DNA from: Phycisphaerae bacterium
Lineage (GTDB): Bacteria > Planctomycetota > Phycisphaerae > UBA1845
Assembly (NCBI GenBank): GCA_029260215.1
Contig: JAJDDQ010000063.1
Coordinates: 1-47,574, forward strand
DNA length: 47,574 bases
Direction: 5' to 3'
Positions 8,217 through 21,677 of this stretch are shown here, in pieces; positions within the stretch are counted from its first letter, which is position 1, and every line of letters begins with the position of its first letter. Made by a program: the position numbers and the translations under genes. The notes under the pieces were generated by a model. That model searched no databases. It saw only the letters and a list, made by a program, of their open reading frames with translations, and was not told the origin of the DNA.

Positions 8217-8370
8217 GGGCTACTCCTGGAGGGATAGTAGGTTTGCCTATCACAACCGACCAGCATTGAATCAAACACATTTTAGATCAATGGAGATTAG
8301 TCAAACCTAACACTGGGTTCTCCCAATATTGAGACTCATGGCAATGCTCGCGATCATCGAATGGCCCATT

Positions 8371-8663
8371 TCAAGCGGATAAGGAACTGAATATGCCGCG
8401 GGCGAAGGTCTCAGCCCGTGGGCGATTCGATCCGTCGCATGATTCGATGCTTCGCATGTTGGCCTTGTCTCCGCAAGGGCAGCCGGCATACGTCTTTGTC
8501 CGCAGGAAGTCCGCGTACTCTTCCCCGCCTCGAATTGCTCGCGAACGAAATCGAGACAGGCTTGGCGGCCCTCATCGCTAAGGAACACGCGAATCGATCG
8601 CACGCCGCGTTCGATCACACGACGCGGTTGGCCGGGAACAACTACGCATGCAATTCTAGCCAC
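8371..8663 (-). pseudogene. REP-associated (IS200/RAYT-like) Y1 transposase relic
   Basis: The minus strand opens with MARIACVVVPGQPRRVIERG and RVFLSDEGRQACLDFVREQF, which matches the conserved N-terminus of TnpA-REP/Y1 transposases (family form: MARIARVVxPGxPHHVxQRG...VFxSDED). Just after FVREQFEAG, a switch to the next reading frame gives a stretch containing CPCGDKANMRSIE, which resembles the C-terminal RTGRPxGxExFxxxLE block of the same family, ending in TGA at 8371-8373. The middle with the HxH and catalytic tyrosine is missing, so this is an internally deleted and frameshifted relic. It borders the HEPN gene. Confidence 0.55.
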
Positions 8664-8709: not shown

Positions 8710-10608
8710 TTAATCCCCTCCAAGCGCGGACACGATTCCCTGAATCTGCTTCTTGCATCGTTGAAGGAACTCTTGGCTCTTGGCTGGGATGTCACCGTGT
8801 ATTGGATGGGCGAGCATATTTCGTTCCTTGTTCACACGGACGAACCAAGATTCACAATTCTTCTTGCCTTGAACGCCTAACACTCGCTCAAAGGCTGGTC
8901 CGAATAGGCCCCAGTTCTTACTTACGATTTCGCTCATGCCGAGAAGATAGAAATAGGCTTCGAGCGGTGATCGGCAACTATCTTCCTCTCGGGCGGTAGC
9001 GGCATTCGTCCGAACTCGCAGAGGAATACCGTCCACCCACCAAGAATCTTCGCCGAATTCCTGCTTGAGCCGATTCAAAATTGCACGATGCAGTTCTCGT
9101 TCGATGGCGGCGACATCGTCACGCGGTCTAAGCAGGTTTGCGACCAAAATCAGAGTTTTGTCGAGCTCGACAAAACTGTCGATTGCACGCTTCCAGACTC
9201 CTTCAAGGCATCGTGGCGGAAGTGACCATCGATTGGATTCCGTCTGCAATTCCAGGCGATCATGAACAGTTTTCAATTCATCACGCAGTGCTTCGGCTAG
9301 TTCCTCCGCGTGTTCGGCGTCACGAATCAACTGGTCGTACTCTTTGATCGCCCTCTTCCTCTTCTCCTCTGTTGGCCAAGGAATCAAGGTCTCCCTGAGA
9401 ACGCGGGGCCTTATGATCGGTTCTTGTAGGGAACCTGACGCCCGGCAAATAATGTCCACTCGAACGATTCCGTCAGTCAAACACCGACCAAGGTATTCGA
9501 TATCATGATCATTTGCCGAATCGCACTTGATTGTCGCTGCTCTCGTCGCTCCGTCACGATTGGGTGCCCATCGATGCGGTATTCCTGACGAAGAACCGTC
9601 CAAAGGGCACCAAATAGAGTCCAAAAGTTCATCGCCAGTGCTCCAGTCCCGAATTTCCGTTACGCTCTTGCAGGCCTCTTCGATCGTCATCAGAGGACCA
9701 CGAAGTCGCATCTTAAAGTCATGCTGGATATCGACAAATCGGTCAACATCAGTGCCCCAGTATCCCTTGACCGCCATGTCATGCAATGGAATGAAGGAGT
9801 CATCATCTCCTCGAACATGGGAGCCCGTCGCGATGTCGAACAAGGCGCGTGCGTGCGTGGAGTCCGCAGACAAGTTTTTAGCAATCCGGGGCGTGATGTC
9901 TCGTACATGCACAGGCTTCGGCAAATTCTTAGCGCCGACAAACCAAAGCGTATTCCATCCGAAACCGGCGATCGCAGCAAATTCTGCGTCGGGGTCCGCA
10001 GGGTTGCTGTCGGAAGAGTCAAAGCGCCATACAAATGAAGGAAGAAGTCCGCCGTAGTTGATTTGTTTGTATTGAAACTTGAGCGAGCATTTCCCTTCTC
10101 CGAGTACGCCTGTCCAATGCAACGCATACGGAAAATCGTATATGCGACTTCCAACTTCTTTGCGAAAGGGCTCAAACTCGTCAGAAACGAAGTCCGAATA
10201 CTGCGCGGCACACATTGTAAGAGCCTCCCCACCGAGTAGCGAGGCAAGAATCAGATTTGGCGATGCGACAACAGCTCTTCCATTGGGAAAACTTCGAAAA
10301 TCTTTCGAAAGCGAGTCAAACACATCTAAATCGGGGGGAAGCGCAATTATGGCGTACCAATTCCGACTAGCTGTCCAATCATCATGAATGCGCAACGCGC
10401 TTTCGATGCTCAGCTGATCGTATGGAAAATGCAGGTTTTCGTTCTCGGAGTTCGCTAGTTCCTGAAGAATGTCCGGAGCATGCTCGCGTAAATGGTCACG
10501 CGTTGGACCGAATAAGCAGAAACGATCATTGGAACCGATTCCAACTCGTTCCTTCACCAGACCATTCAGCGTGGGTAGTGTATTTGCGAGGACTTGCTCG
10601 TATTCCAT
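8710..10608 (-). CDS. Protein of unknown function with C-terminal Swt1-like HEPN domain
   Basis: This 632-residue soluble protein has no signal peptide or membrane segment. Residues about 1-430 are not recognised. Residues 430-475 are strongly charged and probably coiled-coil (AEHAEELAEALRDELKTVHD). The last 130 residues resemble a Swt1/ApeA-type HEPN domain: ILNRLKQEFGEDSWWVDGIP, then YFYLLGMSEIVSKNWGLFG, then WFVRVNKERNMLAHPIHGDI. The segment RNMLAH (596-601) fits the HEPN ribonuclease motif R-x4-H. HEPN proteins often act as RNases in phage defence or toxin systems, but the HEPN fold also has non-catalytic versions. By eye its GC content is lower than that of its neighbours, and it lies between a transposase relic and nuoB, so it may have been acquired. 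No antitoxin-like partner is visible. Confidence 0.75.
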   Translation of the reverse strand: MEYEQVLANTLPTLNGLVKERVGIGSNDRFCLFGPTRDHLREHAPDILQELANSENENLHFPYDQLSIESALRIHDDWTASRNWYAIIALPPDLDVFDSLSKDFRSFPNGRAVVASPNLILASLLGGEALTMCAAQYSDFVSDEFEPFRKEVGSRIYDFPYALHWTGVLGEGKCSLKFQYKQINYGGLLPSFVWRFDSSDSNPADPDAEFAAIAGFGWNTLWFVGAKNLPKPVHVRDITPRIAKNLSADSTHARALFDIATGSHVRGDDDSFIPLHDMAVKGYWGTDVDRFVDIQHDFKMRLRGPLMTIEEACKSVTEIRDWSTGDELLDSIWCPLDGSSSGIPHRWAPNRDGATRAATIKCDSANDHDIEYLGRCLTDGIVRVDIICRASGSLQEPIIRPRVLRETLIPWPTEEKRKRAIKEYDQLIRDAEHAEELAEALRDELKTVHDRLELQTESNRWSLPPRCLEGVWKRAIDSFVELDKTLILVANLLRPRDDVAAIERELHRAILNRLKQEFGEDSWWVDGIPLRVRTNAATAREEDSCRSPLEAYFYLLGMSEIVSKNWGLFGPAFERVLGVQGKKNCESWFVRVNKERNMLAHPIHGDIPAKSQEFLQRCKKQIQGIVSALGGD

Positions 10609-10788
10609 CTGCGTCGATCCACGGTTGGGCTATTCACGATCCATGCCGAATCACACGGGCGAGTTCGTAGCGATTGTTGTTCTCCTGTGCTGTTGGCTTC
10701 CGTGGGAACACACAGCACCCGCATCGTCTCTTGGGCGAGAAGGCTCGGCCCGTGCGCGATCCAGCGCGACCGACCCACCGCCCAGTTA

Positions 10789-11418
10789 CTACGCCTCGCT
10801 GCCTGCCGGGACGCCGTTGTTGCTCAGCGCCCGATTCAGCCGTTCGGAATTGAGTTGGATGGTCGGCTGAACAACAAGTCCGAGTCCGCCGCGCTGGGCG
10901 CTGGGTTTGACGCCCTCATTCTCCACGAGGCGCTGGATAGCCATGATGCCCTCGATCAACGTCTCCGGCCTCGGGGGGCAGCCGGGGACGTACACATCCA
11001 CCGGCATAAATTGATCGACGCCCTGCACAACGGCATACGTGTCGAACACGCCGCCGGTACTGGCACACGCGCCCATGCTGATAACCCACTTCGGCTCGCA
11101 CATCTGCTGGTAAATGCGTTGCAGAACGGGCATCATTTTGATCGCGACGCGCCCGGCACAAATCATCAGATCGCACTGCCGCGGCGTGAAGCGCATCACC
11201 TCCGCCCCGAAGCGCGAAATGTCATACCGACTCGCCCCGGTGGCCATCAACTCGATCCCGCAGCACGCCGTCGCAAACGGCATAGGCCAGAGCGAGTTCT
11301 TCCGCGACCAGTTAGGCCCATGCTTGCGCAGCAGGCCGACAATGTGATCGAGGCGGGTGGACAGCGTGTCGTTCCTGCCCAGCATGTGCGGGGAAATCTC
11401 GGCCTTGCTCAATCCCAT
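10789..11418 (-). CDS. nuoB: NADH-quinone oxidoreductase subunit B
   Basis: NuoB holds the terminal N2 4Fe-4S cluster of respiratory complex I, which passes electrons from NADH to quinone at the cytoplasmic face of the membrane. The cluster ligands are visible in [24 protein letters not shown] and [10 protein letters not shown]. The product is about 209 residues from ATG 11418, which has a GGGGGA sequence seven bases ahead. An upstream in-frame ATG at 11439 is possible but has a poorer ribosome-binding site. It follows nuoA with a 10-bp overlap. The rest of the nuo cluster (C to N) is not adjacent: the next minus-strand gene downstream is the unrelated HEPN gene. Confidence 0.95.
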
Positions 11419-11831
11419 TGGAACATCCCCCGTCGCCATTCGTAAATAAACCCGACCACCAGAAAAGCCGCAAAAACCGTCATGCCCCCGAGCAGATAAG
11501 TCGCATCGGCTGTGTGACCGCTGGCAGACACGAACGGCTGCCCCGATTTCGCAACATTATGAAACAACGGTGCCCAAGGCCAAAGGAAGACAATCTCAAC
11601 GTCGAACAAAAGGAACAGCATCGCAACAATGTAAAAGCGAATGTTGAATCGGCCTCGGGCGTCACCGATGGTCGGCATGCCCGATTCGTACGTGCTGTCC
11701 TTAACGTCGCCCTTGCGCGCCGGCCTGATGAGGTGCGCGAGCAGCAGCATCACGCAAGCCATCGCCCCGATAACTGCAATCACAAAAACGATCGAAGCGA
11801 AAGGCCACAAATCCTGTGCGAGCATGGACAT
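11409..11831 (-). CDS. nuoA: NADH-quinone oxidoreductase subunit A
   Basis: NuoA is a small membrane subunit of complex I near the quinone-binding site. The 140-residue product has the family's three transmembrane segments (about residues 10-36, 66-92 and 110-130). It also has the conserved loop [20 protein letters not shown] and the motif [15 protein letters not shown], in which the acidic residues of the second helix are kept. It overlaps nuoB and the two are surely cotranscribed. The 359-bp region ahead of it should carry the promoter. Confidence 0.95.
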
Positions 11832-20942: not shown

Positions 20943-21677
20943 TCACTTAAGATTGATGGACGCACCGCTTGCGCCAGGGAACCGATCAAGAAAACGGCGA
21001 AACTCGTCGTTTTTCTTCATCCAAATATGAAACTGTTCAACTGCGATTTCGCGAGCCAACTTTCGGCTCTTCATCAGGTCGATACCGTCACATTTTCCCG
21101 GAATGCATATCGGATGCTTCACGCCACTGATAGAGCAGCCATCAAGCGGGATTGGGTGCGTGATGACAATGTCATAGATCGCTCCTGCCTTCAGCGACAG
21201 CCCTCCACTGCTCTCATCGAAGCTGGCGTCTGCTTTCACTCGTCGCCATAAAACAGGCTCCTTCGTCTGCCCTTGGCTCGCCGGTGGCTCAAAGCTGTAG
21301 ACGGGGATTCGGGCCTCGTATTGAACGAAAAAGCAGCGTTTCCGCGTCTCGTCCTCTCGGCGAAACACCATAAAATGTCTTCCGTTGAGAACGTTGAGTT
21401 GAAACTTGATCAGTAAGGGGCCGTAGCGATTTCCACGTTGGTAATCATTGAGGCCCGTCCACGTACCAGGCGCGGTGCAAAGACCGTGCTTCGGCAGGCG
21501 CAACGACCATTTGCTTCTGAGCCCCAACTTGCCTTCGTCGAGGATTTTGCGAAGCTCATCTTCGTGGCACGCGTGATATAGATAGCCGCCCAGTTTTTGG
21601 GTGAGTTCCTTGTTCCACCGAAAGTAGCCGCGAAAATCCGCTTGTGCGAAGGGACGCTTGTAGTCTGGTTCGGTCAC
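20943..21677 (-). CDS. Hypothetical protein, possible ADP-ribosyltransferase-like fold
   Basis: The 244-residue soluble protein is not recognised with confidence. Residues 30-50, GGYLYHACHEDELRKILDEG, resemble the start of ADP-ribosyltransferase-like and phosphotransferase folds (LYHxTxxEnLxxILxxG). These occur in enzymes such as DarT-type toxins and tRNA 2'-phosphotransferase. The rest (TWTGLNDYQRGNRYGPLLIKF, RCFFVQYEARIPVY) gives no clear catalytic residue. It starts at GTG 21677 with AGGAT eight bases ahead. It stands alone, with no antitoxin-like neighbour, between the CPXCG gene and hemC. By eye, codon use is less GC-rich than in neighbouring genes. Confidence 0.6.
   Translation of the reverse strand: MTEPDYKRPFAQADFRGYFRWNKELTQKLGGYLYHACHEDELRKILDEGKLGLRSKWSLRLPKHGLCTAPGTWTGLNDYQRGNRYGPLLIKFQLNVLNGRHFMVFRREDETRKRCFFVQYEARIPVYSFEPPASQGQTKEPVLWRRVKADASFDESSGGLSLKAGAIYDIVITHPIPLDGCSISGVKHPICIPGKCDGIDLMKSRKLAREIAVEQFHIWMKKNDEFRRFLDRFPGASGASINLK

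What the first reader, a model, noticed from the sequence alone, without database searches (positions are those of the whole stretch)
8710..10608. Candidate HEPN-domain defence or toxin gene in a possible acquired island
The C-terminus carries a Swt1/ApeA-like HEPN domain with RNMLAH (R-x4-H), and the first 430 residues are unknown. It is next to a RAYT transposase relic and by eye has lower GC than its neighbours. HEPN ribonucleases are common effectors of phage defence; function here is inferred. No partner gene is seen, so it could be a single-gene system with the N-terminal part as the sensor.
Basis: partly seen in the sequence, partly recalled or inferred. Interest (0 to 1): 0.6.

Follow-up and report, generated by a model that had tools for sequence, protein, structure and literature searches.

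The report
DNA-reader fused to RNA-cutting toxin domain
A gene in a Phycisphaerae-type bacterium appears to join a DNA-sequence-reading module of the kind used by restriction enzymes to a toxin-like RNA-cutting domain, suggesting a one-gene virus alarm that reads DNA but would damage RNA; its function is untested.

Summary
Its C-terminus is a Swt1-like HEPN domain. R596 and H601 are kept in 10 of 10 aligned rows. The gene has the lowest GC3 of 27 window ORFs I compared. It follows nuoB, where 26 of 29 loci of other family genomes carry nuoC, so acquisition is supported; a chimeric contig join is not excluded.

New: part of the 'unknown' front is recognisable. Residues 328-446 match the target-recognition domain and dimerisation helix of type I restriction S subunits (HsdS): hhalign probability 95%, score 61 against at most 22 in 150 column shuffles. 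The only solved structures this profile finds are two HsdS entries, at weak E 0.005. One relative shares this front, has no detectable HEPN behind it, and lies in a defence island.

Best reading: a single-TRD, methylase-less 'S-subunit-HEPN' protein that reads DNA and triggers an RNase. Residues 1-303 remain unassigned, and no activity has been shown. It is a new variant of the known R-M/HEPN theme. I found no HEPN-TRD fusion in the papers searched.

The parts
8710..10608 (-). Whole gene, 632 aa: N-domain, HsdS-like TRD, spacer helix, HEPN
9700..10608 (-). Residues 1-303: unassigned N-terminal domain, alpha/beta in a low-confidence model; part of it is shared with L013, the only relative found
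   Evidence: no significant N6-methylase match
9382..9699 (-). Residues ~304-409: HsdS-like target-recognition domain (the aligned part starts at residue 328; outer limit by eye)
9364..9384 (-). [quoted passage not shown]
   Evidence: IPLPP hallmark described in PMC3874165 (passage)
9244..9369 (-). Residues 414-455: long helix, counterpart of the HsdS dimerisation/spacer helix; overlaps a sub-cut-off DUF7620 hit at 411-462
   Evidence: alignment to HsdS to residue 446; helix in the low-confidence model; DUF7620
8725..9114 (-). Residues 499-628: Swt1-like HEPN domain
8806..8823 (-). RNMLAH, R596 and H601 of the HEPN motif
   Evidence: 10 of 10 rows keep both
8310..8663 (-). Possible RAYT N-terminal relic next to the gene
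   Evidence: 65% over 37 aa to another frame in the genome; no profile hit
10789..11439 (-). nuoB: nuoC expected next, HEPN gene found instead

Best explanation
A horizontally acquired single-gene defence protein. A single HsdS-like target-recognition domain and its proline-motif spacer helix (residues ~304-455) bind a DNA sequence, presumably as a homodimer through the helix, as single-TRD S subunits do. The C-terminal Swt1-like HEPN domain, brought into a dimer, cleaves RNA and shuts the infected cell down when foreign or unmodified target DNA is bound. Shown here: the intact ORF, HEPN homology and R/H conservation, HsdS-like homology of the middle, low GC3, and the unusual nuo neighbourhood. 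Inferred: DNA binding, dimerisation, RNase activity, the trigger, and defence. The role of residues 1-303 is unknown.
For: HEPN: PADLOC PDC-M34B E 5.9e-6 at 502-602; a nine-relative profile finds it at 98.9%, E 1.9e-17; R596/H601 in 10 of 10 rows. TRD: two-row profile A5 against 29 HsdS segments (36 less seven dropped): probability 95.3, E 2.3e-8, score 61.0; maximum 21.8 in 150 column shuffles; 13 other window proteins reach probability 1.0 at most. P0001 alone and L013 alone each hit the same place (81.8 and 92.3; 56.3 and 91.7 with the 29 segments). The PDB hits of A5 are two HsdS entries only, E 0.005. P0001 itself hits PADLOC Specificity_I weakly (E 0.013). The relative L013 hits Specificity_I (E 2.3e-4) and mad5 (6.1e-4) and NCBIfam MAD5 (6.4e-4, far below its cut-off) there. 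Front and back are separable: L013 keeps the front with no detectable HEPN at its back; the HEPN is elsewhere joined to DGQHR domains and, in L014, to an HTH-like start. L013 sits among Fic PDC-S24, HNH, SspB and SspC-like genes. Acquisition. Homodimeric single-TRD S subunits exist (PMC3874165 passages).
Against: No activity data. The protein misses Pfam's HEPN_Swt1 cut-off and has no Methylase_S hit; its only Pfam hit is DUF7620 over the helix. A HEPN profile (A2) found no HEPN structure in the PDB (best hit an alginate lyase, E 0.14). The front module was found in one other genome only: 1 in a class draw of 397, none besides the own genome in a phylum draw of 392, none in 28 genomes of that relative's family besides itself, none as full module in 294 phylum genomes with profile A5. 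The gene is not in a recognisable defence island; own-genome HsdS and HsdM lie on other contigs. Codon-usage distance is not extreme. Structure models are weak (pLDDT 37.7 and 66.1).
Confidence: 0.5

Rival explanations
1. PrrC-like satellite: the HsdS-like part docks onto an HsdM or HsdS of one of the genome's own type I systems encoded elsewhere, and the HEPN fires when that system is disabled. It works by binding a protein partner, not by reading DNA itself.
For: The own genome holds HsdS and HsdM on contigs C26 and C7. The CR-TRD connection is one proposed HsdM contact in HsdS (PMC3047542 passage). PrrC is held in check by EcoprrI (PMC3710099 passages; PMC3874165 passage).
Against: No N6_Mtase match lies on the window's contig. 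Around the one front-module relative, none of nine neighbours scanned hit an N6-methylase in Pfam at E <=0.05; in PADLOC the GHKL ATPase there gave a weak MTase_I hit, E 0.014. Not all ORFs of that stretch were scanned.
Confidence: 0.2
2. Degenerate DNA methylase: residues 1-303 are a dead gamma-class N6-methylase (lost SAM and NPPY motifs) that still recognises methyl state, so the protein is a methylase-TRD-HEPN fusion which senses unmethylated DNA.
For: By eye, the 'LLPPGGGVLAVCPDSEL' stretch of L013 resembles the strand after motif IV; full-front L013 alone picks that place in two methylase groups.
Against: Not significant: probability <=1.5, and 4 of 60 shuffles scored as high. P0001 alone aligns elsewhere in both groups, and trimmed L013 does so in the second.
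Confidence: 0.15
3. Toxin relic or domesticated remnant: the gene was carried in by a rearrangement at nuoB and is not functional, or the contig join is chimeric.
For: Next to it is a possible transposase relic; nuoC does not follow nuoB here; the assembly is a draft of 88 contigs.
Against: The 632-codon frame is intact and the catalytic residues are kept.
Confidence: 0.15

Closest known systems
Type I restriction S subunit (HsdS, e.g. PDB 3okg/5ybb) and single-TRD S subunits of 'type 1 1/2' methylases
   Same: TRD, proline-rich motif, dimerisation helix
   Different: One TRD, no methylase gene on the contig, extra 303-residue front and HEPN back
Swt1-like bacterial HEPN proteins (PF18731; PADLOC PDC-M34B)
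   Same: HEPN sequence, R-x4-H pair
   Different: The members scanned here carry DGQHR, HTH-like or other fronts; none of the eight scanned in PADLOC hit an S-subunit model
PrrC/EcoprrI
   Same: HEPN RNase linked to type I restriction logic (PMC3710099 passages)
   Different: No ATPase part found here; here the DNA-reading part is fused to the HEPN chain
BrxX and gamma N6-methylases with C-terminal TRD and helical spacer
   Different: No detectable methylase domain; HEPN at the end

Membership tests
HEPN superfamily, Swt1-like | R-x4-6-H motif conserved in homologues | tested here: met
   10 of 10 rows keep R596 and H601
HEPN superfamily, Swt1-like | Over Pfam HEPN_Swt1 cut-off (27.5 bits) | tested here: not met
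   14.9 bits for the domain; relatives L131 and L132 pass
HEPN superfamily, Swt1-like | Helical-bundle fold | tested here: inconclusive
   Model pLDDT 66.1; HEPN chains among the top 20 rows at Z 4.9-6.1, rmsd 3.4-4.7 over 94-104 residues, mixed with unrelated helical proteins up to Z 7.1 (several named HEPN from recall); no Foldseek E <=0.001
HEPN superfamily, Swt1-like | Ribonuclease activity | not testable with these tools
   no bench data
Type I S subunit (HsdS) | TRD followed by proline motif and helix | tested here: met
   profile comparison; PDB profile hits are HsdS only
Type I S subunit (HsdS) | Two TRDs in one chain, or a single TRD paired with an HsdM gene | tested here: not met
   one TRD found; N6_Mtase hits of this genome (E <=1e-8) are on C26, C7 and C14, none on the window's contig C60
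Type I S subunit (HsdS) | Pfam Methylase_S match | tested here: not met
   not among hits at E <=1 or, for the front, E <=10
PrrC/RloC anticodon nucleases | N-terminal ABC-type ATPase | tested here: not met
   no ATPase family among Pfam hits
N6 DNA methylase with TRD (BrxX, type IIG) | N6-methylase domain | tested here: not met
   no Pfam methylase hit; hhalign probability <=1.5, within shuffles
PADLOC PDC-M34 | HMM match of component B plus its partner component | tested here: inconclusive
MNT-HEPN toxin-antitoxin | Adjacent nucleotidyltransferase gene | tested here: not met
   Pfam on the neighbours gave nuoB (Oxidored_q6), a DUF3466-like protein and no hit for the relic

The most novel reading that the evidence does not exclude
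A restriction-like immune protein that reads a DNA sequence (and perhaps its methylation) with an S-subunit module but answers by cutting RNA. It would do so in one chain, without methylase, helicase or DNase, and belong to a family whose sensor front is shared while its killing back is swapped.
Probability: 0.3. Interest if true: 0.75.

Novelty: new variant of a known kind. Interest (0 to 1): 0.52.

Why it matters
The 2013 HEPN survey states that HEPN domains tied to restriction systems fuse to nucleases, helicases and ATPases but not to methylases (PMC3710099 passages). A HEPN fused directly to the sequence-reading module would give a physical link between DNA recognition and suicidal RNA cleavage in one chain. 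It would make 'does a restriction target signal trigger an RNase?' testable with one gene.

Tried and rejected
N-terminal matches L005, L006 and L007 (E 0.005-0.009) were rejected as chance: reading the frames, two look like adenosylhomocysteinase and one like an alpha/beta hydrolase (by eye). Of the three non-self hits of profile A5, two are HsdS by eye (L023, L025) and one looks like urocanase (L024). N6-methylase origin of residues 1-303: not supported. HEPN at the back of L013: not detected (score 13.4; shuffles up to 22.5), although LRNRYHGHG was noted by eye. P0001 compared with L131 and L132 alone is not significant (score 15.0, shuffles up to 21.5); the link to Pfam HEPN_Swt1 runs through L011, L014 and others. 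PDB by sequence: P0001 alone gave only chance-level hits (flavodoxins, E 0.17), the HEPN profile A2 none below E 0.14, L013 none. Viral contigs: no relative. Phage records: none. Plasmids: HEPN part only; L013 none. Genome collection: 0, then 1 locus, L012, the contig already seen as L002 (same length and frame). PHROGs: nothing useful. Full-length AlphaFold model unusable (pLDDT 37.7). Papers naming PDC-M34: 0. The MADS search returned mostly unrelated papers, none opened.

Full report
What is there. Window 8710-10608 is a single open frame of 632 codons on the minus strand. The upstream neighbour on the same strand is nuoB (Oxidored_q6, E 2.5e-27) and the downstream neighbour is a 708-residue DUF3466-like protein with dockerin-like repeats (dockerin by eye). 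It has no profile hit and one 37-residue, 65% match elsewhere in the genome, itself without a Pfam hit. I regard the name as possible but unproven. The host is a Phycisphaerae-type bacterium, judged from the title of L012's record, whose genome (as G015) is in the same family.

HEPN domain. Full-length profile searches give PDC-M34B at E 5.9e-6 and 5e-5, and no HEPN in Pfam or NCBIfam. Homology searches found HEPN relatives in 2 further genomes of 60 relatives (the same 2 in 51 family genomes), 1 further genome in a 392-genome phylum draw (L011) and 2 further in a 397-genome class draw (L014 and L015, besides L002, L003 and the front relative L013). On plasmids the protein hit 5 records, all over the HEPN part; with L011 as query 10 records matched, 5 of them annotated 'Swt1 family HEPN domain-containing protein'. 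Four of six alignment members, the window's own included, hit HEPN_Swt1, and L131 and L132 pass its cut-off. In an alignment of ten rows (the window protein plus L002, L003, L008, L009, L011, L014, L015, L131, L132) R596 and H601 are identical in all ten, while the neighbouring N597 is not. Left out of that alignment were L012 (the same contig as L002) and six further plasmid records that were not aligned: NC_009426, CP072139 and CP072175 (DGQHR proteins) and CP142674, CP115967 and CP033227 ('Swt1 family' proteins). A profile of the nine relatives finds the window protein at 98.9%, E 1.9e-17; a profile of L131 and L132 alone does not. A profile of six members found no HEPN structure by sequence in the PDB. 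A two-sequence AlphaFold model of the domain has pLDDT 66.1. HEPN chains appear among its top 20 VIA-align rows at Z 4.9-6.1, but so do unrelated helical proteins at Z up to 7.1, and Foldseek gives no significant match. So the fold is compatible, not proven.

The front. Full-length or front searches found no relative of residues 1-470 among 60, 51 and 392 genomes (nominal hits at E 0.005-0.009 are chance by reading). One relative appeared in the class draw of 397: L013 in genome G509, E 3.5e-17, 31% identical over residues 233-463, with a weak second match over residues 4-62 (E 0.001). L013 hits type I specificity-subunit models (best 2.3e-4) and mad5 (6.1e-4) in the same place, and NCBIfam MAD5 (6.4e-4, 18.7 bits against a 400 cut-off). 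P0001 itself hits Specificity_I at E 0.013; its only Pfam hit is DUF7620, below cut-off, over the helix at 411-462. I then compared the two-row profile A5 with HsdS segments taken from Methylase_S-bearing loci of relatives plus L023 and L025. With 36 segments: probability 95.3, E 2.4e-8, score 60.8, against a maximum of 19.7 in 40 column shuffles. Three of the 36 were visibly not TRDs (by eye). With 29 segments (seven dropped by a motif rule): probability 95.3, score 61.0, maximum 21.8 in 150 shuffles; the window protein alone scored 37.0 (probability 56.3) against a maximum of 23.6 in 150 shuffles; 13 other window proteins reached probability 1.0 at most. The alignment covers residues 328-446 and puts IPWPTEE on the proline-rich motif and the following residues on the dimerisation helix. 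In the PDB, A5 finds only 5ybb_D and 3okg_A, both S subunits, at E about 0.005. In 294 phylum genomes the three non-self hits of A5 include two HsdS by eye. Residues 1-303 stay unassigned. A dead N6-methylase was tested and is within noise: one short stretch of L013 picks the same place in two methylase groups, but the window protein alone aligns elsewhere.

Modularity and context. L013 keeps the front but its back shows no HEPN. Its ~20 kb neighbourhood holds a Fic protein (PDC-S24, E 2e-178), an HNH nuclease, a uracil-DNA-glycosylase-like protein, a GHKL ATPase, a DUF4145 protein, and SspB- and SspC-like genes. Conversely, the same HEPN is joined to DGQHR/DndB-like domains on plasmids and in L015 and to an HTH-like start, below Pfam's cut-off, in L014. 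Sensor fronts and HEPN backs exchanged is what effector modules of defence proteins show; it is circumstantial evidence for defence.

Acquisition. The gene's GC3 (0.522) is the lowest of the 27 window ORFs I compared, the next being 0.609; its codon-usage distance is third highest, so not extreme. Of 51 family genomes 47 had a nuoB match and the best 30 became loci. In the 29 of these from other genomes, nuoC follows within 135 bases (or overlaps slightly) in 26, at 999 bases in 1, and was not found in 2, one of which ends after 204 bases. In the window nuoC and nuoD are absent and the HEPN gene starts 180 bases after nuoB. Within about 1.5 kb of nuoB none of these 29 loci matched the HEPN protein at E 1e-10. 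Whether nuoC lies elsewhere in the genome I could not test, so a misassembled join is not excluded.

Mechanism. From the reviewed biology, each TRD of an S subunit reads one half of a bipartite site; the helix after the proline motif dimerises, and S subunits reduced to a single TRD work as homodimers (PMC3874165, passages). HEPN RNases act as dimers (established knowledge, recalled). A single-TRD chain with a C-terminal HEPN would therefore pair both functions through one helix. I propose that DNA binding arranges or releases the HEPN pair, which cuts RNA and stops the infected cell. The trigger (target sequence, its methylation, or a protein of the phage) is unknown. The main rival is a PrrC-like satellite that docks on a type I enzyme of the same cell, whose genes exist on contigs C26 and C7.

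Novelty. The HEPN survey (PMC3710099; 12 of 21 places found were shown) says that R-M-linked HEPNs fuse to nucleases, helicases and ATPases and not to methylases; in the passages I saw, TRD appears only as an abbreviation in a figure legend. The BREX and Dnd surveys (PMC12839542, 12 of 18 places; PMC10853773, 12 of 15 places) mention HEPN as standalone or fused to DUF499 ATPases, nucleotidyltransferases or DndF. I searched for HEPN with HsdS or specificity subunit (138 papers with two of three terms, 20 listed), with target recognition domain (4 papers; PMC5720513 not opened) and for related terms (184 papers, 10 listed). No listed title or abstract start named a TRD-HEPN fusion; most listed papers were not opened. 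Supplements and subscription papers were not searched. I rate it a new variant of a known kind.

Noticed in passing
L008 6096-16399 and L009 2442-12830 (alphaproteobacterial plasmids): Repeated gene set: DGQHR-HEPN fusion, second DGQHR protein, radical SAM protein, two ATP-binding proteins, PIN-like protein; looks like a DndB/DpdB-related candidate defence island.
   Followed up: partly
L131 4951-7529, L132 4957-7535, L133 5098-7529: Swt1-like HEPN protein directly upstream of (in two cases overlapping) a tyrosine recombinase on sphingomonad plasmids; neither recombinase scanned (L131, L132) hits PADLOC at E <=1e-5.
   Followed up: partly
window 20949-21677 (-): 243-codon ORF in a local GC dip with no PADLOC hit at E <=0.05 and only a sub-cut-off Pfam hit (Lipase_C, E 0.022); by eye its start recalls ADP-ribosyltransferase-like proteins.
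   Followed up: partly
L130 9070-15215 (own genome, contig C7): Type I system genes next to an AAA_13/PDC-S06 ATPase with some PrrC similarity.
   Followed up: no
window 10608-10789: nuoC does not follow nuoB in this genome, unlike 26 of 29 loci of other family genomes.
   Followed up: partly
L016 8450-11080: Relative of the front module (876-877 residues) with an unassigned back that carries LRNRYHGHG (R-x5-H by eye) but no detectable HEPN similarity.
   Followed up: partly
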